Position numbers and translations under genes: made by a program. 23,867 nt of DNA from a virus. Positions 11,201-23,867 of the stretch are shown piece by piece. The stretch is taken from IMG/VR virus record IMGVR_UViG_3300002350_000009, positions 8,493 to 32,359 of that record; one strand, given 5' to 3'. The stretch's first letter is position 1. Every line of letters begins with the position of its first letter. The notes below the pieces were generated by a model, which saw nothing but the letters and a program-made list of their open reading frames with translations, ran no database searches and had not been told where the DNA came from.

Positions 11201-14200
11201 ATTTCAAGGTGAACAAGGTTTCCAAGGTAATCAGGGCCATCAAGGTTTTCAAGGAGAACAGGGAGAACAAGGGATTCAAGGCCATCAAGGATTCCAAGGT
11301 TATCAAGGTGAACAAGGTATTCAAGGAGATCAGGGTTATCAAGGTTTTCAAGGAGAACAAGGGTTTCAAGGTGAACAAGGATTTCAAGGTGAACAAGGTA
11401 ATCAAGGCGATCAAGGATTCCAAGGAAATCAAGGAGATCAGGGATCACAGGGTGACCAAGGTTATCAGGGTTATCAAGGCGAGCAAGGCTATCAAGGGGA
11501 TCAAGGCTACCAAGGTGTTCAAGGACCAAAGAACACGGAAAACGCTCACACATCTGCTCGTTTAGCAACAACTACCGCCCTTAATAATTCCCCAACTTAC
11601 ACTGCTGGAAGTGCAGATGCATCTAATGGTACTGGCGTTGGTGCTTATATTCAAGCCACTACAAATGGGGCTTTGTCTGTTGATAGTGTTGCTGTAGCTG
11701 TTGGTGATAGAATATTAGTTAAAAATCAATCTGATGCAAGACAGAATGGTATTTATACAGTTGATGCCACTGGTGGACCATCTGCTTTATACAAACTCAT
11801 CAGAGCAACAGACTTTGATAATCATATCGCTGCTCAAGTTGAGTATGGCGATTATCTATTTATAGTAGCTGGAACAGTAAATAATAATACTTCTTCTTTG
11901 CAAAATAGTGTTGGTTCTAATGTAGATGGAAGTATTCGTATTGGAACTGATGATATAACCTTTACACAAGTTGGTGGTATTGGACCACAGGGTTATCAGG
12001 GCGTTACTGGTGCTGGTGGTGCTTTAGGTTATTACGGATCTTTCTATTCTGATTTAACTCAGACTGCTGCTTCAACAGCTACAGCTTATGCGATGACATT
12101 TAACAATACGCCAGATGCTAATGGCGTTTCTATACAATCAAACTCTCAGATTAAAGTTGCTCATCCTGGAACTTATGATCTACAGTTTTCTGCTCAATTA
12201 TATTATTCTGGCGGTGGTGGTAATGGACAAACTGTACAGATTTGGTTTAAATTAAATGGCGTAGATGTTGCTGATTCTGCCACAAAAGTAAATGTTACTT
12301 CAAATAACCCATTTAATGTTGCTGCTTGGGATTATCTTTTTACTACCACATCTGCTAATGAATATATAGAAATAATGTGGAGTACTGATAATACTAATAT
12401 TCAACTTTTAAGGAACACATCTACATCTCCAGCACCAGCTATACCATCAGTAATTGCAACTGTAATGCAAGTGATGTATACACAAGTTGGTCCACAAGGT
12501 AATCAGGGGTTGCAGGGATTGCAGGGGTCACAAGGTAATCAAGGTTTACAAGGTCATCAAGGTTTACAAGGTCTTAAGGGCGATCAAGGATATCAAGGTA
12601 ATCAAGGATTACAAGGTCACCAAGGCATTCAAGGTCATCAGGGCGTTCAAGGATATCAAGGTTATCAAGGGATTTTAGGCGAACAAGGATTTCAAGGTCA
12701 TCAAGGAAATCAAGGTATACAAGGTCATCAGGGCGAACAGGGTTTCCAAGGTCATCAAGGAGAACAGGGCGAACAAGGATTTCAAGGAGAACAGGGTTTT
12801 CAAGGAAATCAAGGTGATCAAGGTGATCAAGGATTTCAAGGGGAACAAGGTCAACAAGGCCATCAAGGCAATCAGGGTGACCAAGGATTTCAAGGGAATC
12901 AAGGAGATCAAGGTTTTCAAGGTGAGCAAGGATTCCAAGGAAATCAAGGAGAACAGGGATTTCAAGGTTTTCAAGGAGATCAGGGAAATCAAGGTTCGCA
13001 GGGTGAACAAGGTTCACAGGGTGATCAAGGATTCCAAGGAGAACATGGAAATCAAGGTGATCAGGGATCACAAGGTGATCAGGGATTACAAGGCGATCAA
13101 GGCAATTATGGAAATCAAGGCGACCAAGGATATCAGGGAGCAACTGGTAGCTTTGGTGGTGTAACAGTTGAATATAAAATAGACACAAATAATTATTTTA
13201 TCAATGATCCAGGCGACAACTACATAAGATTTAACAATGCTTCTCTTGCATCAGCTACGCATGTTATAATTGATGATAATCCAAATAATGCAAACATAGA
13301 TCTTTCTCTATTCTTAGCCACAATCTCTGCTTCAACAAGCACTATGAAAGGTCATTTCAAATTATCTAAGAAAAATGACTCTACAGTATTTGCACTTTAC
13401 ACTATAAGCAATTCCTCAGAACAAGAGCCTAGCTTCTTTGATGTTACAATTTCTTATTTATCTGGAAGTGGCTCGTTTTCTAATGATGATGAAGTATTGC
13501 TCACCTTTGCAAGAACTGGTGATAAGGGTGATACTGGCTATCAGGGATATCAAGGGTATCAGGGAGAACAGGGGCAACAGGGTTATCAAGGCATAAATAG
13601 GGGTGTCTATACTGCAAGTCCAACTGCTCCATTATCGCCAACTGCTGGCGATCTTTGGATAGATACATCAACTGGTATTTTTTACATATATGTTGTAGAT
13701 ACAGATAGTTCACAGTGGGTTCAATTTGTAGGTGCAAAAGGCGAACAAGGATTTCAAGGTGCTGGTTTCCAAGGAAGTCAAGGAACTCAAGGCACACAAG
13801 GCGTACAAGGAAATCAAGGAGAACAAGGTTTTCAAGGTGCTGGTTTTCAAGGTTTTCAAGGAGAACAGGGCGAACAAGGGTTGCAAGGTTTTCAAGGAGA
13901 ACAGGGAGATCAGGGTGGCATAGGATCGCAGGGAGATCAAGGTTATCAGGGTGAACAAGGATACCAAGGACAACAAGGATTTCAAGGAAATCAGGGCTAT
14001 CAGGGAGAACAAGGAAATCAAGGTTATCAAGGATACCAAGGCTATCAGGGAGATGTGCCTTATACTTATACTGGCACATGGTCTGCTTTAACTACCTATG
14101 TTTTAAATGATGCTGCTACTTATCAAGGATCATTGTATCAATTGACCAATGTTGGAAGTTGGTCTTTGGGAGCGACACCTCCAAACAACGGATGGACTTT

Positions 14201-16571
14201 ATTGGTTCAAAAGGGTAATCAAGGAGATCAAGGAAATCAAGGAGAACAAGGTTTTCAAGGAAATCAAGGTTTCCAAGGATACCAAGGAGAACAAGGATAC
14301 CAAGGTGAACAAGGGAACCAAGGCGAACAAGGAAATCAAGGTTATCAAGGATACCAAGGAGATTTGGGTCTTCAAGGATCTCAAGGGGTTCAAGGAGATC
14401 AGGGAGAACAAGGTTATCAAGGCGATCAGGGCTATCAAGGAGAAATTGGCTATCAAGGCGATCAAGGTTATCAAGGAGATCAAGGGGATCAAGGATATCA
14501 AGGCGATCAAGGTTATCAAGGTTTTCAAGGCGAACAAGGTAATCAAGGACTGCAAGGTGATCAAGGATTTCAAGGAAATCAAGGAGAACAAGGAGAACAA
14601 GGCGAACAAGGTAATCAAGGAGAACAAGGTTATCAAGGAATTAGAGGGTATCAAGGATTTCAAGGAGATCAAGGAAATCAAGGTGATCAAGGAGAACAAG
14701 GCGATCAAGGTTTTCAAGGAAACCAAGGTTTTCAAGGAAATCAAGGATACCAAGGAGAGCAAGGTGATCAAGGAAATCAAGGCTATCAAGGCTATCAAGG
14801 CTATCAAGGAACATCTGGTTCTGGCGTAACCATTCAAGGTTCAGAAACATGGGAAAACATATTTAACAATGAAACTGCTGGTGCATCTTTAGGTGATATG
14901 TGGATTGTCACAAATGTAAATCAAGGAACAGCTACTCAGGCATGTCCTAATCCAACTGGTGGCACAGCATCTATAGGCGATGGTTTGATTTATACTGGTT
15001 CATCTCCAGTATATTGGCAGAATGTGAGTCTTGTAAGAGGACCACAAGGATTTCAAGGTATTTTAGGAAGTCAAGGAAGTCAAGGAAGTCAAGGAGTTCA
15101 AGGATCTATTGGATCTCAAGGTAACCAAGGAAATCAAGGTATTCAAGGTTCTGTTGGACCTCAAGGAAACCAAGGCAATCAAGGAAGACAGGGTATAACT
15201 GGATCTCAAGGTTTTCAAGGAAATCAAGGTAATCAAGGATTTCAAGGAACTGTTGGAACGATAGGATCTCAAGGAAATCAAGGCTTACAAGGTGATCAAG
15301 GTTTTCAAGGCAGACAAGGATTTCAAGGAATACTTGGTAATCAAGGCTACCAAGGTAATCAGGGTTTATCTGGTGGTACTGGATCACAGGGATCGGCTGG
15401 AAATAATGGAAATCAAGGTTTTCAAGGCAATCAAGGCAATCAAGGAAACCAAGGTTTTCAATCTAGTGGTTCTGTGACTTCTGTATCATTATCTGCACCA
15501 GCCATATTCAATGTTTCTGGATCGCCAGTTATAAATGCTGGAACTTTCACAGTTACATTTGTAAATCAATCTGGAAATACTGTACTTGCTTCCCCAAATG
15601 GTTCTACTGGTGTTCCATCTTTTAGATCTTTAGTTCCTGCCGATATACCTACGCTTAATCAAAATACTACTGGTGTAGCTACAACAGCAATAAATATTTC
15701 TGGTGGTTCTATAGGTGGTATTCCATATCAATCTGGAACAAGTTCAACAGCAATTTTAGCAGCAGGAACTAGTGATCAAGTTTTAAAATCAAATGGTTCA
15801 TCTGCTCCATCTTGGATAAATCAAAGTTCAATTACTGCTGGTGGTCTATCGACTACTCTTGCTGTTGGTTCTGGTGGAACTGGGCTTACTTCTGCTGGAA
15901 CAAGTGGGAATGTTCTTACAAGCAATGGCTCTACTTGGACTAGCTCGCCAGCAGTTAGCTCGAATCCAACAGGATCAATAATTGCTTTTGCTGGTACTAC
16001 TGCTCCTGCTGGATGGTTATTATGTGATGGTACAAATACTTATTCTAGAACTACTTATGCTGCATTATTTACTGTAATTGGAACAACATATAGTGCAGGA
16101 AATGGTAGCACATTTGGAGTACCAGACTTAAGAGGCAGAACAATAATTGGTGTTGGAACTGGTGTTGGTCTTACGAATAGGGGATTGGCTGTTAAAATAG
16201 GTACAGAAACAGTCACTTTAAATTCATCTCAAATACCAGCACATACTCATCCTAATGCTGTATATGGTGGTAGCACTGGTGGTATGTCTGCTAATCAAGT
16301 GCATTCACACTCTGCGGTTTGGGTTGCTGGAGGTGGTCAAATAGGAAGAGGTGCTTATGGATTTGCTAATCTTGGTGGTGGTTATCAAGGAAGACTTATA
16401 GTGTCTGGTGGTTCAGAGTATGGACAATACTGTACGGTTGGAGATAGTCCTAGCATTGATCATACCCATACATTTACGCCATATATAAGCAATGCCAACA
16501 ATACTGGTGGTGGTTATTCGCATGATAACATGCAACCAAGCATAGCATTAAACTACATAATAAAAACTTAG
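8262..16571 (+). CDS. Giant modular collagen-like tail fibre with C-terminal collar tip
   Basis: A single intact 2769-residue frame; ATG 8262 with GGAG at 8248-8251. Gly-X-Gln triplet blocks (X mostly F, E, N, D, L, Y, S, H) alternate with globular inserts. In residues: short N-terminal anchor 1-39; CBM5/12-like module 87-136; unknown beta insert 281-372; paralogous inserts 586-709 and 1626-1755; second CBM-like 838-892; tail-fibre module 1088-1242 with GDRILVKNQ-type motif; C1q/jelly-roll-like module 1247-1409; GDLWIDTSTG module 1776-1827; third CBM-like 1931-1984; GDMWIV module 2184-2259; Ser/Thr/Gly-rich stalk 2400-2568; tail-collar domain from about 2569 with HTH, HSH and HTH motifs and an end (QPSIALNYIIK) shared with the collar genes downstream. 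No signal peptide is visible, which fits a virion fibre made in the cytoplasm. It is most likely a long receptor- or surface-binding fibre; which tail part it attaches to is unknown. Confidence 0.88.
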   Translation: MHFQRNITRIQDQDDFSGVPASGQAVFFDGENFITSDLLGSQGQQGFQGSQGLQGMIGVQGHQGQMGEQGLQGDQGDQGNQGSIGVGLTFRGAYNPSSQYYVNDVVTYGGSSWICISTIDGVTPAENSWWTIFAEKGTNGSQGSQGFQGRQGLQGLQGNQGFQGRQGFQGHQGDQGWQGHQGFQGRQGFQGHQGEQGDQGHQGFQGRQGFQGEQGNQGSQGDQGDQGLQGEQGLQGLQGLQGLQGHQGEQGFQGEQGNQGEQGYQGNQGDQGSQGDQGFQGTTPLICTTQNTGEYYFQTVGENYYQSPIATGLSFGAGQTLSVYAPTDNVIQYMRITSYNPTTGNIVAVVTHSSSPGFKTYDTLSICLAGKVGEQGNQGYQGQQGNQGHQGFQGEQGFQGNQGDQGLQGHQGFQGDQGLQGNQGFQGEQGFQGNQGEQGFQGEQGNQGDQGDQGSQGFQGEQGDQGDQGFQGEQGLQGDQGSQGNQGDQGSQGDQGLQGEQGFQGNQGDQGFQGEQGQQGSQGNQGDQGDQGDQGFQGEQGEQGNQGDQGNQGEQGNQGSQGEQGYQGWQGEQGSQGNQGDQGERGIAALSWTYKVNTTTLTDLDPTNDYISFNADPFTSATQVKVDDNPYGINTTLHDLFLSIQSGYLTLTHQANPSTYVTYQITSCVDGTATNDTVDGSYVIFNVTLVSTYGVINNEDFVTLSIGLVGSQGYQGFQGNQGSQGYQGSQGNQGSQGSQGNQGDQGDQGDQGEQGSQGDQGSQGNQGDQGGQGEQGFQGDQGEQGFQGDQGSQGNQGLQGEQGNQGNQGFQGEQGFQGNQGYQGWQGEQGSQGNQGSDALWNFTGAYSGGASYAIGDIATYLGQTWYRIHSNGGNLGDTPSEGTFWTLIAQKGDQGQQGLQGNQGDQGFQGDQGFQGNQGDQGFQGEQGLQGDQGYQGFQGEQGFQGEQGNQGDQGLQGFQGEQGNQGFQGLQGSQGDQGFQGEQGFQGNQGHQGFQGEQGEQGIQGHQGFQGYQGEQGIQGDQGYQGFQGEQGFQGEQGFQGEQGNQGDQGFQGNQGDQGSQGDQGYQGYQGEQGYQGDQGYQGVQGPKNTENAHTSARLATTTALNNSPTYTAGSADASNGTGVGAYIQATTNGALSVDSVAVAVGDRILVKNQSDARQNGIYTVDATGGPSALYKLIRATDFDNHIAAQVEYGDYLFIVAGTVNNNTSSLQNSVGSNVDGSIRIGTDDITFTQVGGIGPQGYQGVTGAGGALGYYGSFYSDLTQTAASTATAYAMTFNNTPDANGVSIQSNSQIKVAHPGTYDLQFSAQLYYSGGGGNGQTVQIWFKLNGVDVADSATKVNVTSNNPFNVAAWDYLFTTTSANEYIEIMWSTDNTNIQLLRNTSTSPAPAIPSVIATVMQVMYTQVGPQGNQGLQGLQGSQGNQGLQGHQGLQGLKGDQGYQGNQGLQGHQGIQGHQGVQGYQGYQGILGEQGFQGHQGNQGIQGHQGEQGFQGHQGEQGEQGFQGEQGFQGNQGDQGDQGFQGEQGQQGHQGNQGDQGFQGNQGDQGFQGEQGFQGNQGEQGFQGFQGDQGNQGSQGEQGSQGDQGFQGEHGNQGDQGSQGDQGLQGDQGNYGNQGDQGYQGATGSFGGVTVEYKIDTNNYFINDPGDNYIRFNNASLASATHVIIDDNPNNANIDLSLFLATISASTSTMKGHFKLSKKNDSTVFALYTISNSSEQEPSFFDVTISYLSGSGSFSNDDEVLLTFARTGDKGDTGYQGYQGYQGEQGQQGYQGINRGVYTASPTAPLSPTAGDLWIDTSTGIFYIYVVDTDSSQWVQFVGAKGEQGFQGAGFQGSQGTQGTQGVQGNQGEQGFQGAGFQGFQGEQGEQGLQGFQGEQGDQGGIGSQGDQGYQGEQGYQGQQGFQGNQGYQGEQGNQGYQGYQGYQGDVPYTYTGTWSALTTYVLNDAATYQGSLYQLTNVGSWSLGATPPNNGWTLLVQKGNQGDQGNQGEQGFQGNQGFQGYQGEQGYQGEQGNQGEQGNQGYQGYQGDLGLQGSQGVQGDQGEQGYQGDQGYQGEIGYQGDQGYQGDQGDQGYQGDQGYQGFQGEQGNQGLQGDQGFQGNQGEQGEQGEQGNQGEQGYQGIRGYQGFQGDQGNQGDQGEQGDQGFQGNQGFQGNQGYQGEQGDQGNQGYQGYQGYQGTSGSGVTIQGSETWENIFNNETAGASLGDMWIVTNVNQGTATQACPNPTGGTASIGDGLIYTGSSPVYWQNVSLVRGPQGFQGILGSQGSQGSQGVQGSIGSQGNQGNQGIQGSVGPQGNQGNQGRQGITGSQGFQGNQGNQGFQGTVGTIGSQGNQGLQGDQGFQGRQGFQGILGNQGYQGNQGLSGGTGSQGSAGNNGNQGFQGNQGNQGNQGFQSSGSVTSVSLSAPAIFNVSGSPVINAGTFTVTFVNQSGNTVLASPNGSTGVPSFRSLVPADIPTLNQNTTGVATTAINISGGSIGGIPYQSGTSSTAILAAGTSDQVLKSNGSSAPSWINQSSITAGGLSTTLAVGSGGTGLTSAGTSGNVLTSNGSTWTSSPAVSSNPTGSIIAFAGTTAPAGWLLCDGTNTYSRTTYAALFTVIGTTYSAGNGSTFGVPDLRGRTIIGVGTGVGLTNRGLAVKIGTETVTLNSSQIPAHTHPNAVYGGSTGGMSANQVHSHSAVWVAGGGQIGRGAYGFANLGGGYQGRLIVSGGSEYGQYCTVGDSPSIDHTHTFTPYISNANNTGGGYSHDNMQPSIALNYIIKT
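8520..8668 (+). other. CBM5/12-like module 1 in giant fibre
   Basis: A segment of about 50 residues, with pattern FRGAY ... NDVVTYGGSSW ... P ... WW ... KG, matches the short aromatic chitin/cellulose-binding type (GD/ND-x-V-x-Y-x-G then W). It is followed at once by a new Gly-X-Gln block. Two related copies lie at 10774 and 14053. Carbohydrate binding is inferred. Confidence 0.6.
8955..8990 (+). repeat. Four perfect tandem copies of a 9-base collagen unit
   Basis: CAAGGCTTA is repeated four times without a change and encodes consecutive Gln-Gly-Leu. The surrounding units are scrambled by synonymous changes, so this run looks recently expanded by slippage. Confidence 0.85.
10018..10386 (+). 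other. Beta insert A1 of giant fibre (paralogue of 13138-13524)
   Basis: About 123 residues separate two collagen blocks. They align by eye with the insert at 13138-13524. Shared landmarks are Y-K-[VI]-[ND]-T near the start, N-D-Y-I-S/R-F-N, S-A-T-x-V-x-[VI]-D-D-N-P, a Y-x-I-[TS] strand and a closing V-x-L-[ST]-[IF] before Gly-X-Gln resumes. I do not recognise a named family. Confidence 0.6.
10774..10935 (+). other. CBM5/12-like module 2 in giant fibre
   Basis: About 54 residues with FTGAY ... GDIATYLGQTWYRI ... TPSEGTFWTLIAQKG. The layout is the same as in module 1: aromatic start, G-D-x-A-x-Y-x-G, then Pro and Trp before the next collagen block. Confidence 0.6.
11523..11985 (+). other. Tail-fibre module with GDRILVKNQ motif
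   Basis: This insert of about 154 residues contains ARLATTTAL, then V-D-S-V-A-V-A-V-GDRILVKNQ-x-D-A-R-x-NGIYTV and a [K]LIRATDFD strand. The arrangement occurs widely in phage tail fibres and appendages, where it precedes a receptor-binding part. It is recognised from memory of the pattern. Confidence 0.65.
12000..12485 (+). other. C1q/jelly-roll-like module
   Basis: About 160 residues, beginning GYYGSFYSDLTQTA and including the strands HPGTYDLQFSAQLYYSG, VQIWFKLNGVDV and IEIMWSTDNTNIQLL. The order resembles the C1q/TNF-like jelly-roll found next to collagen segments in animals and in some bacterial and phage collagen-like proteins. It would be a natural trimerisation unit for the collagen-like rods on both sides. 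Confidence 0.5.
13138..13524 (+). other. Beta insert A2 of giant fibre (paralogue of 10018-10386)
   Basis: About 129 residues, sharing landmarks with insert A1 (VEYKIDTN, DNYIRFNNA, ATHVIIDDNP, FALYTIS, DDEVLLTF). Divergence from A1 is large, so the duplication is old. Confidence 0.6.
14053..14212 (+). other. CBM5/12-like module 3 in giant fibre
   Basis: About 53 residues with YTGTWSALTTY, NDAATYQGSLYQL and TPPNNGWTLLVQKG. This is the most divergent of the three copies but keeps the same aromatic and Gly/Pro/Trp landmarks. Confidence 0.55.
15970..16571 (+). other. Phage tail collar domain at giant fibre C-terminus
   Basis: Features are GSIIAFAGTTAPAGWLLCDG, Y-S-R-x-T-Y-A-A-LF-x-VIGTTY, F-x-V-PDLRGR and a QPSIALNYIIK end, with HTH, HSH and HTH motifs. 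This is the same domain as in the three stand-alone genes at 19414, 20109 and 20801. It probably forms the trimeric tip. Confidence 0.85.
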
Positions 16572-16583
16572 GATATATGCAAT

Positions 16584-18968
16584 ATGCCAATAAATTTTCC
16601 TATTAATCCCGATAATAATGACACTTATACATTCGATGGTAAGACATGGGTTTACAACGATACTGGTTGGGTTGGACTAGGTGTTGCTGGACCACAAGGA
16701 TTGCAAGGATTGCAGGGTAATCAAGGTGATCAAGGTTTTCAAGGAATTGTTGGGGAACAAGGATTTCAAGGAAATCAAGGTGATCAAGGATTTCAAGGTG
16801 AACAAGGACAACAGGGCGATCAGGGCAATCAAGGTTTTCAAGGAGAAATAGGTTTAACTGGTTTTCAAGGTTTTCAAGGATATCAAGGAAGTCAAGGGGA
16901 TCAAGGCGATCAAGGCGATCAAGGTGATCAAGGGTCGCAAGGTAACCAAGGAGAACAAGGAGATCAAGGATCGCAGGGTAATCAAGGATTTTATGGAGAT
17001 CAAGGCAATCAGGGCGACCAAGGATATCAAGGCAATCAAGGCAATCAAGGTTATCAGGGAAGTCAAGGAGATCAAGGAAATCAAGGAAACCAAGGAGATC
17101 AAGGAGATGTAGGTTCACAAGGATTTCAAGGCAATCAAGGAGTTGTTGGAGCAACAGGAAATCAAGGCGATCAAGGTTTATCTGGAAGTACTGGAAATCA
17201 AGGCAGACAAGGTTTTCAAGGATCAATAGGGAATCAAGGATTTCAAGGCAGACAGGGTTTTCAAGGTTTAACAGGCAATCAAGGCAATCAAGGTTCTCAA
17301 GGTAGACAAGGTTTTCAAGGTTTAACTGGAACTGGAAATCAAGGCTTTCAAGGCTTTCAAGGATCTCAAGGATATCAAGGATCTCAAGGATCTCAAGGAT
17401 ATCAAGGCTTTAGGGGCTATCAAGGTTATCAAGGCAATCAAGGTAATCAAGGATTTCAAGGAGAACAAGGAGTTCAAGGATCTCAAGGATCTCAAGGATT
17501 TCAAGGTTTTCAAGGAAGACAAGGTTTTCAAGGAATTGTTGGCAATCAAGGCTTTCAAGGAGAACAAGGATATCAAGGAAGACAAGGTTTCCAAGGAAAT
17601 CAGGGGTTACAAGGCATTATTGGAAATCAAGGTAACCAAGGTTTTCAAGGAAGACAAGGTTTTCAAGGTGTAACTGGAACAGGAAACCAAGGAAATCAAG
17701 GAGAACAAGGTTCACAAGGCGAACAAGGAAATCAAGGTAATTATGGTAATCAGGGTGATCAAGGAAATCAAGGTGATCAAGGAAATTATGGATGGCAAGG
17801 TGAACAAGGATTACAAGGAAATCAAGGTGATCAAGGCAACTATGGATGGCAGGGTTATCAAGGAAATCAAGGCGATCAAGGTATGTATGGCTGGCAAGGA
17901 TGGCAAGGGTCACAAGGTGATCAAGGTATGTATGGCTGGCAAGGTTATCAGGGATACCAAGGAGAACAGGGCGACCAAGGTCATCAGGGCAATCAAGGTT
18001 GGCAGGGTGAACAGGGCGATCAAGGGCATCAAGGTTGGCAAGGTCATCAGGGAGATCAGGGATGGCAGGGAGATCAAGGTTACCAAGGCTCGCAAGGTGA
18101 TCAAGGTCAAGGGAATCAAGGAGATCAAGGTTCTCAAGGAAACCAAGGACTACAAGGTTTAACTGGCCCAGTTGCTGGATCAGCAAATCAGGTTGTCTAC
18201 AAAGACGGAAGCAATGCTGCTGCTGGATCTTCAAGCTTTACTTTTAATGGCACAACAGTAACTACTCCAGTGCTTGCTATAAGTCCTACTGTTGGCACAG
18301 GAACACAGCCTTCTTCAGTTACAGTTACTGCTCCTAATCATACTGCTTTGACAGCAGCTACAGAATATAGCGATGTTTTTCTAAATCTTAATAGAACCGT
18401 TCAATTTTCCGCTGGTTTTTTAAGTTCTCAAAGAGCAATAAAAATATCTGCCCCAACTTATAGTGCGGTAAGTGCGAGTACATTTACAAATGCTGCAACA
18501 ATACAGATTGATTCTGCTCCTATTGCTGGAACTAATCTAACTTTAACTAACGCCTATGCACTTCGTGTTCTAACAGGAACCGATGCTGGCGTTGGTATAG
18601 TTATACGAGGCTCTTCTTCTCAGTCAGGAGATCTATTCAGAATACAAAACTTTGGTGAAACTAAGCTACTTTATGTTGATAGTAACTACTCACTATATTT
18701 AGCAAGGTCTTTAAATCTAACTCCTTTTAATACTTCTGCTGGCAATACAAGCGAATTAAGGTTCTATGAACTAGCAGCTAATGGAACAAACTATGTAGGA
18801 TTTAAAGCTGGAGATAATATAGCAAGTAATGTAATATGGACTTTGCCAACTACAGATGGTGCTAATGGTGGAGTAATAATTACTAGTGGTGCTGGCGTAT
18901 TGTCTTGGTCAACCGCCCCATCAGCAGCAAGCAATGTTTTCTTAGCTAACAACTTTGGAGGTTTATAA
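16584..18968 (+). CDS. Second collagen-like tail fibre protein
   Basis: The 794-residue product starts at ATG 16584, 12 bases after the giant gene's stop; AGGA overlaps that stop. Residues 1-35 (NDTYTFDGKTWVYNDTGWVG) resemble the small Trp-rich module seen at the start of many phage fibre segments. Residues 36-527 are Gly-X-Gln repeats with short breaks, such as TGTGNQG twice and GDQGQGNQ near 18107. Arg often fills X in the first half; Tyr and Trp are frequent at the distal end (GMYGWQG, GNYGWQG). Residues 528-794 begin SANQVVYKDGSNAAAG, then FTFNGTTVT, ALRVLTG and NVIWTLPTTDG, a C-terminal pattern common in tail fibres of uncultured phages. No collar domain is present, so the tip differs from that of the giant fibre. 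It is probably a separate or connecting fibre. Confidence 0.85.
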   Translation: MPINFPINPDNNDTYTFDGKTWVYNDTGWVGLGVAGPQGLQGLQGNQGDQGFQGIVGEQGFQGNQGDQGFQGEQGQQGDQGNQGFQGEIGLTGFQGFQGYQGSQGDQGDQGDQGDQGSQGNQGEQGDQGSQGNQGFYGDQGNQGDQGYQGNQGNQGYQGSQGDQGNQGNQGDQGDVGSQGFQGNQGVVGATGNQGDQGLSGSTGNQGRQGFQGSIGNQGFQGRQGFQGLTGNQGNQGSQGRQGFQGLTGTGNQGFQGFQGSQGYQGSQGSQGYQGFRGYQGYQGNQGNQGFQGEQGVQGSQGSQGFQGFQGRQGFQGIVGNQGFQGEQGYQGRQGFQGNQGLQGIIGNQGNQGFQGRQGFQGVTGTGNQGNQGEQGSQGEQGNQGNYGNQGDQGNQGDQGNYGWQGEQGLQGNQGDQGNYGWQGYQGNQGDQGMYGWQGWQGSQGDQGMYGWQGYQGYQGEQGDQGHQGNQGWQGEQGDQGHQGWQGHQGDQGWQGDQGYQGSQGDQGQGNQGDQGSQGNQGLQGLTGPVAGSANQVVYKDGSNAAAGSSSFTFNGTTVTTPVLAISPTVGTGTQPSSVTVTAPNHTALTAATEYSDVFLNLNRTVQFSAGFLSSQRAIKISAPTYSAVSASTFTNAATIQIDSAPIAGTNLTLTNAYALRVLTGTDAGVGIVIRGSSSQSGDLFRIQNFGETKLLYVDSNYSLYLARSLNLTPFNTSAGNTSELRFYELAANGTNYVGFKAGDNIASNVIWTLPTTDGANGGVIITSGAGVLSWSTAPSAASNVFLANNFGGL
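16689..18168 (+). repeat. Gly-X-Gln repeat block of second fibre
   Basis: About 490 residues of almost continuous nine-base units. A higher-order pattern of NQG-x-QGRQGFQG followed by a short T-G or I-G break recurs between about 17190 and 17690. The distal 17740-18100 part is rich in Tyr and Trp at X. Confidence 0.88.
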
Positions 18969-19414
18969 TGCCAGTCACATCAACGCCTATCTTTGCTCAA
19001 GCACCATACTTTGTTGCAAAAACTCTTGCAGCACAAACAGCTTGTACCACTAGAGGCCCAACAGCAACTGCTAGTCTTGCAGCAGCAAATATTGTAGAGG
19101 TTGTACCAACTTCTACTAATGGATTAAGAATTGATTCAATTCAAGTTAATGCTTGCTCCACCTCTTTTACTTCTGCGACTGCTGGCAATATCGTAGGCAT
19201 ATGGGTATGGGATGGAACTACAGCTTATTTGTTTACAGAAATACTTGTGACTGCTGTAACTCCATCCACTACTGTAGCTGGATTTACAACTACTTTGACT
19301 TTTGCCAACCCTCTTGTTTTACCATCTACATTTAAGCTTTTTGCCTCTGTTAGTGTTACTACTACTGCTAGTACTACCGCATTGCAAGTTTGTGTAATGG
19401 GGGGAAGCTATTAA
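18968..19414 (+). CDS. Hypothetical beta-rich virion/fibre-associated protein
   Basis: This 148-residue product begins at the ATG of a TAATG stop/start overlap with the second fibre gene, and its own stop overlaps the next start in the same way, so all three are translationally coupled. It is rich in Thr, Ala, Val and Ser, with strands NGLRIDSIQVNAC, NIVGIWVWDGTTAYLFTEI, TLTFANPLVLPSTFKLFASV and a C-terminal LQVCVMGGSY. The pattern I-D-x-I-x-V ... W-D-G ... L-x-L-P ... GG-x-Y recurs in small proteins encoded beside phage tail fibres; I know no function for it. It may form a small beta-sandwich knob on a fibre or baseplate. Confidence 0.65.
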   Translation: MPVTSTPIFAQAPYFVAKTLAAQTACTTRGPTATASLAAANIVEVVPTSTNGLRIDSIQVNACSTSFTSATAGNIVGIWVWDGTTAYLFTEILVTAVTPSTTVAGFTTTLTFANPLVLPSTFKLFASVSVTTTASTTALQVCVMGGSY

Positions 19415-20100
19415 TGGCTGGAGCGTTTAACTATGGCATGATACCAAGTAATTCGCCAAAGGGTTCTGCGTTTCAAGCAGTTCAAGACACTTTTATATCA
19501 TCTGGTATCATTCAAATGTTTGCTGGTTCTACTGCTCCAAATGGCTGGCTAATATGTGACGGAAGTACTGTTAGTAGAAGGACTTATGACGACTTATTTA
19601 AAGTAATAGGAACTACATATGGGGCTGGTAATTCTAATACTACATTTACATTACCAGATATGAGAGGGCGATTACCTATCGGTGCTGGAACAGGCACATC
19701 GCTTACCACTAGAACTTTAGGGGCGAATTTGGGTGCAGAGACAGTAACATTAGCACAAACAAATCTTCCACCACATACCCATACCGCTACAGTTGGAACA
19801 CAAAGTGCTAATCATACTCACACAGGAACAAGCGGTGATCAAAGCGTAAATCATACACATAGTTATAACAAACCTATAGGAACTACTGGTTCACAAGTTG
19901 GGATTATAGATTCGCTTACTGCTAGTAGTTCGGGAACACCACAAACAGGTGGGAATTCTGTTGGTCACACTCATTCAACCACATTTGGAACTCAAAGTGC
20001 TACACATACACATAGTGTTACTAATTCAAACACAGGTAGTGGAACACCATTTGGTATTATGCCACCATCAATAGCCGTTAATTTTATTATTAAAATATAG
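19414..20100 (+). CDS. Tail collar domain protein, copy 1
   Basis: The 228-residue product starts at ATG 19414 (TAATG overlap) behind a G-rich stretch (GGGGGGAAG). An in-frame TTG at 19390 would add eight residues but lies inside the upstream gene. The phage tail-collar pattern is clear: FAGSTAPNGWLICDG (37-51), RTYDDLFKVIGTTYG (56-70), FTLPDMRGR (78-86). The C-terminal half has His-x-His motifs at 121, 134, 147, 185 and 198, and ends PPSIAVNFIIK. Such His pairs bind metal ions in T4 tail-fibre tips, so metal-bound trimers are likely. It is the first of three tandem paralogues that also resemble the tip of the giant fibre. The segment between the third and fourth His pairs differs most among the copies and may contact the receptor. 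Confidence 0.87.
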   Translation: MAGAFNYGMIPSNSPKGSAFQAVQDTFISSGIIQMFAGSTAPNGWLICDGSTVSRRTYDDLFKVIGTTYGAGNSNTTFTLPDMRGRLPIGAGTGTSLTTRTLGANLGAETVTLAQTNLPPHTHTATVGTQSANHTHTGTSGDQSVNHTHSYNKPIGTTGSQVGIIDSLTASSSGTPQTGGNSVGHTHSTTFGTQSATHTHSVTNSNTGSGTPFGIMPPSIAVNFIIKI

Positions 20101-20111
20101 GTGAAAAATTG
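20096..20111 (+). promoter_or_regulatory. Stop/RBS/TTG junction between collar copies 1 and 2
   Basis: The TAG stop of copy 1 (20098-20100) runs into AGGTGA (20099-20104), with TTG at 20109. AGGTGA also precedes the portal ATG, so it is a working site in this genome. Protein alignment with copy 1 (MAG-x-F-x-Y) fixes the TTG as the start. Confidence 0.7.
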
Positions 20112-20792
20112 GCTGGATCTTTTTCTTATAATTCGATGCCTACTAACTCTCCAAAGGGAAGTTCATTTGAGCCTATAAAAACACCAATCATACCGACTGG
20201 TATAATAGAAATGTTTGCTGGTTCTGTTGCTCCAATCGGATGGTTAATTTGTGATGGAAGTATTGTTAGTAGGGTAGCTTTTAGTGATTTGTTTAAAGTC
20301 ATAGGCACTACTTATGGCGTTGGTAATTCTAATAGCACATTTACTTTACCAGACATGAGAGGAAGACTACCTATTGGTGTTGGTTCTGGTTCTAGTTTAA
20401 CCACAAGGACATTAGCAGCAACTTTTGGTGCAGAAACAGCTACATTGGCCGAAACTAACTTGCCTTCTCACACACATGCAACTACGGTTGGAACAGAAAG
20501 TGTTACGCATACACACACAGGAACAAGTGGTGGTGAAAGTGCAAATCATGTACACAACTTTAGTCATACTGCGGGTACATCTGGCTCTTACGGATTAATG
20601 GACTCAGGAACAGCTAGTAGTTCTGGTCAACCTAGTACTGGTGGCATTCAGCAAAATCATACTCATGCTACTACAACAGGAACAGAAAGTGCTAATCACA
20701 CACACTCAGTAACAAACTCAAATACTGGAAGTGGAACAGCTTTTGGAATTATGCCTCCGTCAATAGTTGTTAATTTCATTATTAAAATATAG
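20109..20792 (+). CDS. Tail collar domain protein, copy 2 (TTG start)
   Basis: This 227-residue paralogue of the gene before it starts at TTG 20109. Landmarks: FAGSVAPIGWLICDG, LFKVIGTTYG, FTLPDMRGR, His-x-His at 121, 134, 147, 184 and 197, and the end MPPSIVVNFIIK. It is co-linear with copy 1 almost throughout; the main difference is residues 148-183 (NFSHTAGTSGS and following). A TTG start usually lowers translation, so it may be made in smaller amounts than copy 1. It may be an alternative or an additional fibre tip. Confidence 0.87.
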   Translation: MAGSFSYNSMPTNSPKGSSFEPIKTPIIPTGIIEMFAGSVAPIGWLICDGSIVSRVAFSDLFKVIGTTYGVGNSNSTFTLPDMRGRLPIGVGSGSSLTTRTLAATFGAETATLAETNLPSHTHATTVGTESVTHTHTGTSGGESANHVHNFSHTAGTSGSYGLMDSGTASSSGQPSTGGIQQNHTHATTTGTESANHTHSVTNSNTGSGTAFGIMPPSIVVNFIIKI

Positions 20793-20803
20793 GTGAGCAA
20801 TTG
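20788..20803 (+). promoter_or_regulatory. Stop/RBS/TTG junction between collar copies 2 and 3
   Basis: The TAG stop (20790-20792) overlaps AGGTGA (20791-20796), then TTG at 20801. The junction is nearly the same, base for base, as that between copies 1 and 2, indicating that the duplication unit included the ribosome site. Confidence 0.7.
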
Positions 20804-21484
20804 GCTGGATCTTTTTCTTACAGCATGATACCAACCAACTCCCCAAAAGGAAGTTCGTTTCAAGGCTTGCAATCATCTTTTACTCCTATTGGTGTTATAA
20901 GATTTTTTGCTGGATCTGTAGTTCCTAACGGATGGCTTTTATGCAATGGAAGTGCTATTAGCAGAAAGACTTATGGCGATTTATTTAAAGTAATTGGAAC
21001 TACTTATGGTTCTGGAAATTCTAACGATACTTTTACTTTGCCTGATATGAGAGGTAGAATTCCAATTTGTGCAGGAACAGGAACTTCTTTAACTACTAGA
21101 ACTTTGGGTTCAAATGTAGGAGCAGAAACAGTTACTTTATCTGAAGCTAACATGGCTTCTCATACTCATGCTACAACAGTAGGAACACAAACTGCAAATC
21201 ATACACACTCAGGAACAAGTGGTACAGTATCTGTTGACCACACGCATGGTTGGGGAAGAAATGTTGGTTCATCTGGATCATATGGTTTAAGGGATGGTGC
21301 TAACAGAAGTGCTAACGGAACTCCTAATACGCAAGGTGCTCATCAAGGTCATATTCATGGTACTACTACTGGTGTTGAAAGTTCCAATCATAATCATACA
21401 GTTACTAATTCTAGTACTGGAGGTGGAACTGCATTCGGGATTATTCCACCAGCGATAGTTGTTAATTTCATCATAAAAGCATAG
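20801..21484 (+). CDS. Tail collar domain protein, copy 3 (TTG start)
   Basis: The third tandem paralogue is 227 residues from TTG 20801. It keeps FAGSVVPNGWLLCNG, LFKVIGTTYG, FTLPDMRGR and five His-x-His pairs at 121, 134, 147, 184 and 197 (HTH, HTH, HTH, HIH, HNH). The variable stretch (residues 150-183) reads GWGRNVGSSGSYGL and onward, with extra Arg and Trp compared with the other copies. Its end, PPAIVVNFIIKA, is slightly diverged. It has a Cys at residue 90 where the others have Gly. It probably fills the same structural role as copies 1 and 2 with a different binding face. Confidence 0.87.
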   Translation: MAGSFSYSMIPTNSPKGSSFQGLQSSFTPIGVIRFFAGSVVPNGWLLCNGSAISRKTYGDLFKVIGTTYGSGNSNDTFTLPDMRGRIPICAGTGTSLTTRTLGSNVGAETVTLSEANMASHTHATTVGTQTANHTHSGTSGTVSVDHTHGWGRNVGSSGSYGLRDGANRSANGTPNTQGAHQGHIHGTTTGVESSNHNHTVTNSSTGGGTAFGIIPPAIVVNFIIKA

Positions 21485-21492
21485 GAGCAAAA

Positions 21493-22053
21493 ATGTTAAG
21501 CTTAAGTATCATACTGACAAATAGGATAGATAACTCTGGAATAGCAACAGAGGACATATACAACATTAATCTAATTAAAACAAATTCAGATGGTGTTTCA
21601 AGAAATATAACCATGCCAGTTTTACTTGACTCAGAAATTGGCAAATTTATAACTAAACTATCTGATCAAACATGGGATTATATAGCTGCTGCACCTCCAG
21701 ATGCTCTATCTCAAGCAAAGGCATGGTCATTCCAAAATATAGATAATGAATGGGCAGCTTTAGAAAAAGTTGGTTGGGATTCTGGTCGTGGCTATCGTTT
21801 AGGCATTTCTCCCTCTGATGTTGCACTTCTTGTGGGCGTGTTTTCTCTTGCAAAAGAGGCAGCAGCATTGGGCCTAGAACTTCCACACCTAATTAGCATG
21901 GATAATACACCTGTTATTTTCTCGTCTATAGAAGAAATGACTGGTGTTCTACTAGAATATGGACAAGCTCGCTCAGTTTTAGCTGGTATATATGCAGAAA
22001 AAAGAAAGGTGGTAGAGAATGCCACAGAAGTTGGTGTCACAGGTGTAATTTAA
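21493..22053 (+). CDS. DUF4376-like phage protein, possible fibre assembly factor
   Basis: The 186-residue product starts at ATG 21493 behind AGGAGC (21483-21488). The N-terminal half is beta-like; the C-terminal half is helical and follows a layout I associate with DUF4376-type proteins near phage tail fibres: helix with SQAKAWSFQNIDNEW, then SDVALLVGVFSLAKEAAALG, a short D-N-T segment, S-I-E-E-M-T-G-V-L-L-E-Y and a final helix AGIYAEKRKVVENA. In other phages such genes are fibre-assembly or fibre-linked proteins of unclear function. It directly follows the three collar genes, which supports an assembly role. The family link is by pattern and moderately certain. Confidence 0.6.
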   Translation: MLSLSIILTNRIDNSGIATEDIYNINLIKTNSDGVSRNITMPVLLDSEIGKFITKLSDQTWDYIAAAPPDALSQAKAWSFQNIDNEWAALEKVGWDSGRGYRLGISPSDVALLVGVFSLAKEAAALGLELPHLISMDNTPVIFSSIEEMTGVLLEYGQARSVLAGIYAEKRKVVENATEVGVTGVI

Positions 22054-22072
22054 TGTAGGCACAACTACATTA
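22051..22072 (+). other. Inverted repeat between DUF4376-like and holin-like genes
   Basis: TAATGTAG (22051-22058) pairs perfectly with CTACATTA (22065-22072) around a six-base loop. Only three T residues follow, so as a terminator it would be weak. It overlaps the upstream stop codon and lies just before the next gene's ribosome site, so it could also affect translation. Confidence 0.4.
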
Positions 22073-22088
22073 TTTGGGGGTTAGAACA

Positions 22089-22376
22089 ATGGATGAAAAA
22101 GAAATTGTCCTATTAGTTGAACGATTGGGTGTTTCTTGTAGTTTCTTAATATTCTTTGTTTGGACAACCTATAAAGCAGCAAATTGGTTAGGCGAAAAGA
22201 TTATCCTCCCTTTGCATGATAGACACATTAAATTTATAGATAGATTAGAAAATGGACTAGAAAGTGTGGTTAAAAGCCAAGAAAATACTATGGGCATACT
22301 TAATCAGATATTGTTGAACACTAGAGAGCTACATGAACTTAAAAGGAATAAAAAGGAAACAACTAATGCAGAATGA
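22089..22376 (+). CDS. Small one-TM protein, holin-like
   Basis: I take ATG 22089 as the start, with G-rich GGGGG at 22076-22080; an in-frame TTG at 22074 would add five residues. The 95-residue protein has a short acidic N-terminus (MDEKEIVLLVERLG), one hydrophobic segment at about 13-29 (CSFLIFFVWTTY), then an amphipathic or coiled-coil helix (HIKFIDRLENGLESVVKSQ) and a Lys/Glu-rich tail. Size and layout fit small phage membrane proteins of the holin or haemolysin-XhlA type. No endolysin is visible beside it, so a lysis role is a guess; it could anchor another protein. The end overlaps the next small gene. Confidence 0.6.
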   Translation: MDEKEIVLLVERLGVSCSFLIFFVWTTYKAANWLGEKIILPLHDRHIKFIDRLENGLESVVKSQENTMGILNQILLNTRELHELKRNKKETTNAE

Positions 22377-22491
22377 AATTATTTACACAAATGACACTAT
22401 TGTTGCTGTTGAATATACTGTATTAAATAGCAACGAGTGTACTTACATATACACAAATGGGTTTGTACAAAATGAATTTCTTTCAATCTAA
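22366..22491 (+). CDS. Hypothetical 41-residue protein
   Basis: This short frame starts at ATG 22366 with AAAAGGAA (22351-22358) at good distance and overlaps the end of the holin-like gene by 11 bases, as the other genes here do. It encodes about 41 residues (MQNEIIYTNDTIVAVEYTVL then NSNECTYIYTNGFVQNEFLS), beta-like and without a membrane segment. I do not recognise it. Ribosome site and overlap are the only support. Confidence 0.5.
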   Translation: MQNEIIYTNDTIVAVEYTVLNSNECTYIYTNGFVQNEFLSI

Positions 22492-22521
22492 AAACAATAA
22501 CCCAATTCTTAAGGGTTAAAA

Positions 22522-23867
22522 ATGCCTAATTGTATTGATCCACTAAGTTTGGGCATTAATCCATCTTATGAAGGTGAGATTTTTCTTTTTGGTGATTGTT
22601 CTTATACGGCAATAGAAAAAGATGGAAGTTTAAATTGGGAAACAAATGAAGAATTAAAGGTTTATGGAGATTTTAGTACATGCACATCATCTTCTTGTAG
22701 TTGGACCTGGAATTTGGGCTACGGAGAACCAGGCTACTTTACATCATGGAGAAAGACATCTTCGTGCCCACAAGATGGCACATGTCTTTGTTCATATGAA
22801 GGATTTCCTAGTTTTAACGGAACGGAAAATCAAGTCGTATCTTATCCTTGTATATACCCAACTACAACTCAAGAACCAACAACTAGTACTTCTTCTACCA
22901 CTAGTACTTCTTCTACCACTGGTACTTCTTCTACCACTGGTACTTCTTCTACCACTGGTACTTCTTCTACCACTGGAACACCACTTACATCAGAACCTCC
23001 AGATCCAACCACACCACAACCCACTACTACTAATACCACTACTACAACTACAACTACTTCAAATCCTTGTGCTCCTGGAGAATGGAATTGTTCTGGATAT
23101 TGTAGACCTAAAGATCGATATAATTGTAGCGGGTGTGGAGATGCATGTTTAGAAGCACCTTTTGAAGATTGTTGTCCTAATCTTACTGGTGGTGGATTAT
23201 CATGCACAGATTTGCTTTCTAACAATAATAATTGTGGTGGTTGTGGAATAATTTGTGCAGAAGGGGAAGTTTGTTGTTATGGAAATTGTATTACATTAGG
23301 AACAAATGAAAACTGTGCATCTTGTGGCGATTCAGTGCCAGAAGGTACGGTCTGTTGCGATCTTAATAATGATGGTATTTATGGATCAATTTCTCTTGAC
23401 TATTGGAATCTAGGAAACCCTGGATCGTCTGATGATAATAATTGTGGATCATGTGGGAATGTGTGTGTTGCACCATATAGATGTAAAGACGGTGTGTGTA
23501 CTGAAACAACAACATGTTTTGGTGGTTGTACTTGGGAATGGTTGGGGCCAGGAGGCTATTGGTATCAACTTAGTGATTGTAACCCATCATGTATTTGTGA
23601 TTCTCCTACTGATGATGGAACTGAGTTTTATGAGTTTTTTGAATCTCCTTGTTATTCTTTTGTAACAACGACTTCAGAACCAACTACAACGACTTCAGCA
23701 CCAACCACAACGACTACAACCGCTAGTCCAACGACAACGACTACTACAACAACAACCGATAGTCCAACGACTACTACGACTACTTCAGCACCGACTACAA
23801 CGACTACAACCGATAGTCCAACGACTACTACGACTACTACGACTACTTCAGCACCGACTACAACGAC
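22522..23867 (+). CDS. Cysteine-rich, Thr/Ser-repeat (mucin-like) protein, 3' partial
   Basis: The frame opens at ATG 22522 (AAGGG at 22511-22515) and is still open at the window edge after 448 codons. Layout in residues: N-terminal part to about 113 with a C-x4-C-x-W-T-W domain; a Thr/Ser linker with five TSTSST/TGTSST units and more Thr/Pro to about 180; a core at 183-378 with about 30 cysteines, including Stig1-like NNNCGGCG, VCCYGNC and NNCGSCGNVC motifs and a second C-x3-C-x-W-x-W domain (C-F-GG-C-T-W-E-W); then a long P-T-T-T array running off the edge. No signal peptide is visible. It resembles extracellular matrix or mucin-like adhesins and probably decorates the virion or a fibre, but no function is established. 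Many disulfides would be unusual for a protein assembled in the cytoplasm. Confidence 0.75.
   Translation, partial: MPNCIDPLSLGINPSYEGEIFLFGDCSYTAIEKDGSLNWETNEELKVYGDFSTCTSSSCSWTWNLGYGEPGYFTSWRKTSSCPQDGTCLCSYEGFPSFNGTENQVVSYPCIYPTTTQEPTTSTSSTTSTSSTTGTSSTTGTSSTTGTSSTTGTPLTSEPPDPTTPQPTTTNTTTTTTTTSNPCAPGEWNCSGYCRPKDRYNCSGCGDACLEAPFEDCCPNLTGGGLSCTDLLSNNNNCGGCGIICAEGEVCCYGNCITLGTNENCASCGDSVPEGTVCCDLNNDGIYGSISLDYWNLGNPGSSDDNNCGSCGNVCVAPYRCKDGVCTETTTCFGGCTWEWLGPGGYWYQLSDCNPSCICDSPTDDGTEFYEFFESPCYSFVTTTSEPTTTTSAPTTTTTTASPTTTTTTTTTDSPTTTTTTSAPTTTTTTDSPTTTTTTTTTSAPTTT
22882..22980 (+). repeat. 18-base Thr/Ser tandem repeat
   Basis: Five copies of ACT-[AG]GT-ACTTCTTCTACC (18 bases, in frame, T-S/G-T-S-S-T) run from 22882 to 22971, followed by a degenerate partial unit. 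The first two copies have AGT and the next three GGT; otherwise they are identical, which implies recent expansion. Confidence 0.9.
23677..23867 (+). repeat. Threonine-rich Pro-Thr repeat array, open at window edge
   Basis: Degenerate ACN-rich units encode runs of Thr broken by SAP, ASP or DSP. A longer unit of about 54-60 bases, with ACCGATAGTCCAACGACTAC near the start and TTCAGCACCGACTACAACGA near the end, is present nearly twice. The array continues past the window, so its length is unknown. Confidence 0.85.

What the first reader, a model, noticed from the sequence alone, without database searches (positions are those of the whole stretch)
22522..23867. Mucin-like, disulfide-type protein in a phage fibre locus
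The frame combines long Thr/Ser/Pro tracts with about 30 cysteines in Stig1-like NNCGxCG and VCC patterns, plus two copies of a C-W-x-W domain at each side of the array (22678-22860 and 23516-23655). It looks like an animal or plant extracellular protein rather than a phage one. Beside collagen-like and C1q-like parts it suggests an extracellular-matrix-like coat or adhesin, possibly O-glycosylated.
Basis: partly seen in the sequence, partly recalled or inferred. Interest (0 to 1): 0.8.

Follow-up and report, generated by a model that had tools for sequence, protein, structure and literature searches.

The report
Cysteine-module arm on phage virion anchor
The truncated gene is the first half of a phage protein in which small cysteine-rich modules, strung on long threonine-rich linkers, are tethered to a phage-particle attachment domain; related phages swap the modules for others, including a protease and a propeller enzyme fold, so it looks like an interchangeable arm on the virus particle rather than an animal- or plant-like coat protein.

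Summary
The open frame has 38 Cys, four NCxxCG motifs, a significant Stig1 match, two C-W-x-W modules and Thr/Ser/Pro linkers. The contig ends inside the second linker. An IMG/VR contig identical to the window over 11,346 bases completes the gene: 1,090 aa, with capsid/fibre genes upstream and predicted connector/tail genes downstream. So it is a phage gene.

The complete protein is N-cap, Cys modules on Thr linkers, a second Stig1 array, a beta domain, then a C-terminal ~110-aa domain. That domain is the conserved core. It also occurs as a bare gene in sister phages, and a paralogue follows as the next gene. Its predicted fold best matches the TP901-1 BppU N-terminal domain and Sf14/Bas63 neck proteins, which are virion attachment folds. 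Relatives carry other loads on the same anchors: ten Stig1 stretches, a trypsin-like protease, a lactonase-type propeller, or nothing.

Best reading: a swappable, probably disulfide-bonded adhesin-type arm on the virion, most likely at the neck, like lactococcal neck-passage proteins but with the anchor at the opposite end. O-glycosylation is possible but unproven: a GT2 gene is nearby, but it also occurs without this arm. "ECM-like coat" is not supported. New variant of a known kind.

The parts
22522..23865 (+). 5' part (448 aa) of the arm gene ('gene A' with load); runs off the contig. Complete in IMGVR_UViG_3300042372_000620 (L003:10001-13273, 1,090 aa)
   Evidence: window 12522-23867 is 100% identical to L003 over 11,346 bases
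22522..22668 (+). N-terminal cap (49 aa, MPNCIDPLSLGINPSYEGE...), conserved in relatives with different modules
   Evidence: alignment A13, 51-86% identity; 23 IMG/VR loci
22675..22857 (+). C-W-x-W module 1 (six Cys); replaced by an unrelated Cys module in L016
22858..23067 (+). Thr/Ser/Pro linker 1; length varies between alleles
   Evidence: 24 residues shorter in L007
23068..23514 (+). Stig1-like Cys array (four NCxxCG)
   Evidence: Pfam PF04885; AF2 model shows successive beta-hairpins, pLDDT ~80 only in the first ~70 residues
23515..23658 (+). C-W-x-W module 2 (six Cys)
23659..23865 (+). Thr-rich linker 2; the contig breaks here. In the complete gene it is followed by a second Stig1 array, a Thr linker, a beta domain, a Thr linker and the C-terminal anchor domain
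22089..22376 (+). Upstream 95-aa gene with one hydrophobic segment, conserved in synteny next to the anchor genes
   Evidence: hydropathy maximum 2.2
19390..21484 (+). Three tandem Collar-domain genes just upstream (fibre locus)
   Evidence: PF07484 E 1e-22 to 1e-26

Best explanation
The gene encodes a modular accessory arm of a tailed-phage virion. Its C-terminal ~110-aa domain has a BppU-N-like beta-sandwich fold and docks the protein on the particle, most likely at the neck because the gene sits between the capsid/fibre genes and the predicted connector genes; a baseplate site is not excluded. N-terminal to it, small cysteine-rich modules (Stig1-like hairpin arrays and C-W-x-W modules), probably disulfide-bonded after lysis, are spaced by long flexible Thr/Ser/Pro linkers and reach outwards. 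The modules probably bind host-surface or environmental ligands and are exchanged whole by recombination in or beside the low-complexity linkers. Shown by computation: complete architecture, phage context, coding constraint, Cys conservation, module exchange, homologous bare anchors, fold match. Inferred: virion incorporation, neck position, disulfides, ligand binding.
For: (1) The gene is completed in a contig identical over 11,346 bases and the locus continues into predicted connector and tail genes; in the syntenic relative L036 it runs on to a tape-measure gene (PF10145 E 1e-9). (2) The ~110-aa 'RWSYE' domain occurs in two tandem paralogous genes; gene A is bare (109-121 aa) in L036, L037, L038, L039 and L065, and gene B is bare (214 aa) in L003, L007, L016, L036 and L037. 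Loads are fused to A in L003, L007, L016, L033, L044, L112, L098 and L100, and to B in L039, L041 and L044. (3) Loads differ: Stig1 x10 (E 1e-79), lactonase-type propeller (E 9e-43) plus an FN3-like domain, trypsin-like protease (PHROG protease E 1e-8, TNAH and GDSGS motifs), joined through (T)n or (S/T-P)n linkers. (4) Anchor model: best PDB alignments are TP901-1 BppU 4v96 (Z 8.6), Bas63 connector 9mt4 (8.3), Sf14 neck 9c39 (8.2) and, fifth, NF5 baseplate 9m8o (7.5); BFVD matches include BppU-domain and minor tail proteins, TMt about 0.6-0.7 for the single-domain matches. (5) All 17 complete linker-delimited modules with 6 or more Cys have an even Cys number. (6) No strongly hydrophobic segment near the N terminus, as expected of a virion protein rather than a Sec-secreted one.
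Against: The anchor model has modest confidence (mean pLDDT 61, pTM 0.46; C-terminal domain mostly 57-81) and Z around 8 is near the tool's warning level. No sequence-profile match links the anchor to BppU or any PDB chain. The neighbouring 'connector' gene has no family match, so the neck position rests on gene order and fold analogues. The known analogues put the anchor at the N terminus; here it is at the C terminus. One undelimited Cys-rich relative (L041, 173 Cys) is odd. No proteomics or microscopy exists, and neither ligand nor host is known.
Confidence: 0.7

Rival explanations
1. One reading: a mucin-like O-glycosylated, extracellular-matrix-like coat or adhesin, with glycans on the Thr tracts made by phage-encoded enzymes.
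For: Thr-rich tracts are kept at amino-acid level while synonymous sites diverge (linker dS 0.67-0.84, aa identity 77-88%). A GT2 glycosyltransferase lies a few genes downstream (E 4e-11) and a GDP-mannose 4,6-dehydratase upstream (E 1e-106). Full-length GT is in 8 of 8 main anchor-bearing viral records and partial GT in 2 more; all ten carry Thr or Thr/Pro runs, while the two viral records without GT have none.
Against: The GT is also present in L036, whose anchor genes carry no arm (that record has Thr runs elsewhere). Linkers can be Ser/Pro or Thr/Pro instead of Thr. GT best PDB matches are polymer and teichoic-acid enzymes; polypeptide GalNAc-transferase only at E 0.6. The co-occurrence is phylogenetically confounded. 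Nothing indicates a coat.
Confidence: 0.2
2. The Cys modules bind metal (zinc/iron clusters) in the cytoplasm and act during infection rather than as a disulfide-bonded virion arm.
For: The protein has no N-terminal signal-like segment, so it folds first in a reducing cytoplasm.
Against: Even Cys parity per module; the modules match Stig1 and a bacterial Cys-rich class, not zinc-finger families; no His in the window's 448 aa. Disulfide-rich phage virions are known (Milano, PMC10491603).
Confidence: 0.1
3. A non-structural cargo gene (moron) expressed on or secreted from the infected host, unrelated to the particle.
For: Stig1-like repeats also occur in cellular bacteria (Sandaracinus plasmid hit). 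Presence and load vary between relatives.
Against: Fused to the conserved anchor whose fold resembles virion attachment domains; the anchor genes keep their place in the structural block in the relatives read there; no signal-like segment.
Confidence: 0.12
4. Assembly chimera or repeat artefact at a contig end.
For: The contig ends inside a Thr linker, as do at least two other contigs (L005, L008).
Against: Complete copies with the same order in independent contigs (L003, L006, L007, L009, L016).
Confidence: 0.01

Closest known systems
Neck passage structure (NPS) proteins of lactococcal 936 and P335 phages (PMC6669499, PMC10747895)
   Same: BppU-N-like beta-sandwich anchor kept constant while the distal part falls into exchangeable groups; elongated protein thought to ring the neck; optional (about two thirds of 936 phages); proposed host-surface binding
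   Different: Here the anchor is C-terminal; the arm is Cys modules on Thr or Pro linkers rather than a coiled coil ending in carbohydrate-binding modules; two tandem anchor paralogues
TP901-1 BppU upper baseplate protein (4v96) and Sf14 neck whiskers gp30/gp31 (9c39, PMC11821841)
   Same: Predicted anchor fold; Sf14 also has two whisker proteins with adjacent gene numbers near the portal gene
   Different: No sequence-level match; BppU carries receptor-binding protein trimers, not Cys modules
Stig1 family (PF04885) and bacterial MXAN_6577-like cysteine-rich proteins (NF041328)
   Same: NCxxCG / CC-G-C repeat; significant Pfam score (72.8 vs cut-off 24.1)
   Different: Plant STIG1 proteins are small secreted single-array proteins (own knowledge); here the repeat is one module type in a long phage fusion; NF041328 score is below its cut-off (68 vs 100)
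Mucins
   Same: Thr/Ser/Pro-rich tracts between Cys-rich modules
   Different: No signal-like segment, no proven glycosylation, linkers replaceable by Ser/Pro repeats
Agrobacterium phage Milano (PMC10491603)
   Same: Precedent for disulfide-rich neck, collar and capsid in a phage particle
   Different: Disulfides cross-link structural shells; no protruding fibres on that collar

Membership tests
Stig1 (PF04885) | Pfam profile score above the gathering cut-off | tested here: met
   25.2 bits (window part); 72.8 bits (complete protein); cut-off 24.1
Stig1 (PF04885) | Secreted small protein with N-terminal signal peptide (plant STIG1) | tested here: not met
   1,027-1,240 aa; hydropathy of the N terminus below 0.8
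MXAN_6577-like cysteine-rich (NF041328) | Score above NCBIfam cut-off (100 bits) | tested here: not met
   68 bits for the completed protein; relative L043 gene B scores 174.9
BppU-N / NPS anchored virion proteins | BppU-N-like beta-sandwich domain | tested here: met
   fold only: 4v96 Z 8.6, rmsd 3.0, 103 residues; BFVD BppU-domain proteins; model confidence modest; no sequence match
BppU-N / NPS anchored virion proteins | Anchor at the N terminus | tested here: not met
   Anchor is C-terminal in every load-bearing copy read to its end
BppU-N / NPS anchored virion proteins | Distal part exchangeable between relatives | tested here: met
BppU-N / NPS anchored virion proteins | Located on the neck or baseplate of the particle | not testable with these tools
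   needs electron microscopy or proteomics; gene order favours the neck
Mucin-like glycoprotein | Thr/Ser/Pro-rich tracts conserved at amino-acid level | tested here: met
Mucin-like glycoprotein | O-glycans on the tracts | not testable with these tools
   only indirect: GT2 gene and GDP-mannose dehydratase
Disulfide-bonded modules | Even number of Cys per module, all Cys conserved | tested here: met
   17 of 17 complete linker-delimited modules with 6 or more Cys even; 73/73 Cys kept between alleles; bonding itself not shown

The most novel reading that the evidence does not exclude
An uncultivated phage group carries a dedicated display platform: two tandem virion anchors, each able to carry exchangeable outward loads (disulfide-rich Stig1/C-W-x-W arrays, a protease, a propeller) on Thr or Pro linkers, with the Thr linkers O-glycosylated by a phage-encoded GT2 enzyme, which would be a true mucin-like glycoprotein on a phage particle.
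Probability: 0.15. Interest if true: 0.85.

Novelty: new variant of a known kind. Interest (0 to 1): 0.55.

Why it matters
The searches found no related protein in 50,697 isolate phage records and no open-access paper treating Stig1 repeats in phages, so this load type on a virion anchor appears undescribed. Bare and loaded versions of the same anchor in related phages give a natural comparison for testing what such arms do, and the swapped protease and propeller loads suggest a general attachment point for exchangeable functions on phage particles.

Tried and rejected
Animal/plant gene or host gene outside a prophage: rejected by the completed phage locus. GT as specific partner of the Thr tracts: weakened, because L036 has the GT without the arm. 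GT as GT27 polypeptide GalNAc-transferase: D-S/C-H motif seen by eye, but profile E only 0.6. Fold of the Stig1 + C-W-x-W stretch: AF2 pLDDT 60, no PDB match at E<=0.001, so no fold is claimed. Isolate phage relatives of the arm, anchor, GT and a neighbouring gene: none; the terminase only weakly resembles Slash-group Bacillus phages at 25-26%. Host: not found. The one genome hit (L065) is a phage-like contig in a proteobacterial MAG and says little; Stig1 was in 1 of 145 genomes of that MAG's phylum, namely that contig itself. A scan with the C-W-x-W alignment failed for lack of a conserved stretch, and a local profile found no further members. No tRNA genes in the stretches scanned. Myxococcota survey not possible because a plasmid record cannot serve as centre. 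Neck versus baseplate could not be settled; the profiles tried for the connector and tail-tube candidates had no significant PDB match.

Full report
Observation. The open frame at 22522 is real and runs off the contig. It holds 38 Cys, four NCxxCG motifs (0.19 expected for NCxxC, maximum 3 in 20,000 shuffles), two C-W-x-W modules and Thr/Ser/Pro linkers. Stig1 (PF04885) is matched just above its cut-off in the window part and strongly in the completed protein.

Completing the gene. IMG/VR scans with the two halves found close relatives. IMGVR_UViG_3300042372_000620 (59.7 kb; L003) is identical to window 12522-23867, 11,346 bases with no mismatch, and holds the complete gene of 1,090 aa. Alleles of 1,027, 1,057, 1,069 and 1,240 aa exist. 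At least three contigs, the window's among them, stop in the same Thr linker, which explains the truncated window.

Architecture. Aligned alleles show N-cap, C-W-x-W module, Thr linker, Stig1-like array with a second C-W-x-W module, Thr linker, second Stig1-like array, Thr linker, beta-type domain, Thr linker, C-terminal domain. Linkers vary in length; folded parts hardly do. L016 replaces the first module by an unrelated one and inserts two more whole modules. Folded parts are under purifying selection (dN/dS about 0.33-0.41) and all 73 Cys are kept in each pair compared; linkers keep Thr while synonymous sites diverge (alignment of repeats makes those dS values rough). Linker-delimited modules hold 8, 30, 32 and 2 Cys, and the modules inserted in L016 hold 2 and 6. 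Over all relatives, 17 of 17 complete linker-delimited modules with at least 6 Cys are even; the one undelimited Cys-rich protein, L041 with 173, is odd, and modules with 1-4 Cys are mixed. Homologous modules are not independent, so this is support, not a formal probability.

The conserved core is the C-terminal domain. Searching with it and reading the hits showed two tandem paralogous genes, A and B. A is bare in L036, L037, L038, L039 and L065; B is bare in L003, L007, L016, L036 and L037. Loads are fused N-terminally to A or to B. They include Cys arrays (Stig1 x10 in L043/L044 gene B), a lactonase-type propeller with an FN3-like domain (L041 gene B), and a trypsin-like protease (L044, L112, L098 gene A), through (T)n or (S/T-P)n linkers. 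The N-cap also heads a separate gene between A and B in L044 and L112 and the Cys-rich gene before B in L041. Larger Stig1 proteins (2,654 aa, 455 Cys) occur in more distant large phage contigs L056/L057.

Fold of the anchor. AlphaFold2 on 19 rows gave a modest model (pLDDT 61). Foldseek against PDB returned mainly generic Ig-like matches. Against viral models it returned ~105-120-aa phage proteins, BppU-domain proteins, minor tail proteins and a baseplate component. VIA-align of residues 106-214 ranked first TP901-1 4v96 (Z 8.6), then Bas63 connector 9mt4 (8.3), Sf14 neck 9c39 (8.2) and, fifth, NF5 baseplate 9m8o (7.5). A profile search of PDB sequences found nothing, so this is fold-level evidence only.

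Comparison with the literature. In 936 lactococcal phages the neck passage protein keeps a BppU-like N-terminal domain and varies distally in seven groups, most with carbohydrate-binding modules (PMC6669499); in TP901-1 such domains are modelled as a ring over the adaptor (PMC10747895). Sf14 has two whisker proteins encoded near the portal (PMC11821841). Disulfide-rich phage particles are known (Milano, PMC10491603). The present protein works like a neck passage protein but with the anchor at the opposite end and different arm chemistry.

Glycosylation. A GT2 enzyme (595 aa) lies downstream and a GDP-mannose 4,6-dehydratase upstream in G000. GT is full-length in eight anchor-bearing viral records and partial in two others; all ten have Thr or Thr/Pro runs, and the two viral records without GT (G004, G007) have none. 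But L036 has GT with bare anchors, and linkers can be Ser/Pro, so the link is suggestive only. PDB relatives of the GT are polymer and teichoic-acid glycosyltransferases, with GalNAc-T2 only at E 0.6.

What is shown and what is inferred. Shown by computation: phage gene, complete architecture, Cys conservation, module exchange, bare and loaded anchors, fold match. Inferred: presence in the virion, neck position, disulfides, flexible spacing, ligand binding, glycosylation. Host and ligand are unknown. Verdict: a new variant of a known kind, interest 0.55.

Noticed in passing
window 8262-16571: 2,769-aa collagen-like fibre protein with a CBM_5_12 match near its N terminus (aa 93-131) and a Collar domain near its C terminus.
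   Followed up: no
L002:6712-7761 (G000, upstream of the window): Phage-encoded GDP-mannose 4,6-dehydratase (PF16363 E 1e-106), a possible source of a nucleotide sugar.
   Followed up: partly
L044:2102-4099, L112:6117-8324, L098:4086-6125: Trypsin-like protease (TNAH and GDSGS motifs, PHROG protease E 1e-8) joined by a Thr-Pro repeat to the same anchor domain.
   Followed up: partly
L041:4190-6577: Seven-bladed lactonase-type propeller (E 9e-43) joined by a long Thr-Pro repeat and an FN3-like domain to anchor B.
   Followed up: partly
L056:1389-9353 and L057: 2,654-aa protein with 455 Cys and 27 Stig1 stretches in viral contigs of 77-136 kb; the 136-kb record has no GT match.
   Followed up: partly
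L081:953-2362 (minus strand), L080:1459-3330 (minus strand): Other Thr-linker proteins: one beside a large tail-type protein in the record whose anchors are bare, one with discoidin-like repeats by eye.
   Followed up: no
L003:15056-16843, L078, L079: GT2 enzyme with a D-C/S-H motif and a GFGGEEGY...WxHRF region; remote homologues in two other viral records.
   Followed up: partly
window 22377-22521: Gap before the arm gene holds a possible 41-aa frame (MQNEIIYTND...), overlapping the end of the 95-aa gene; read by eye only.
   Followed up: no
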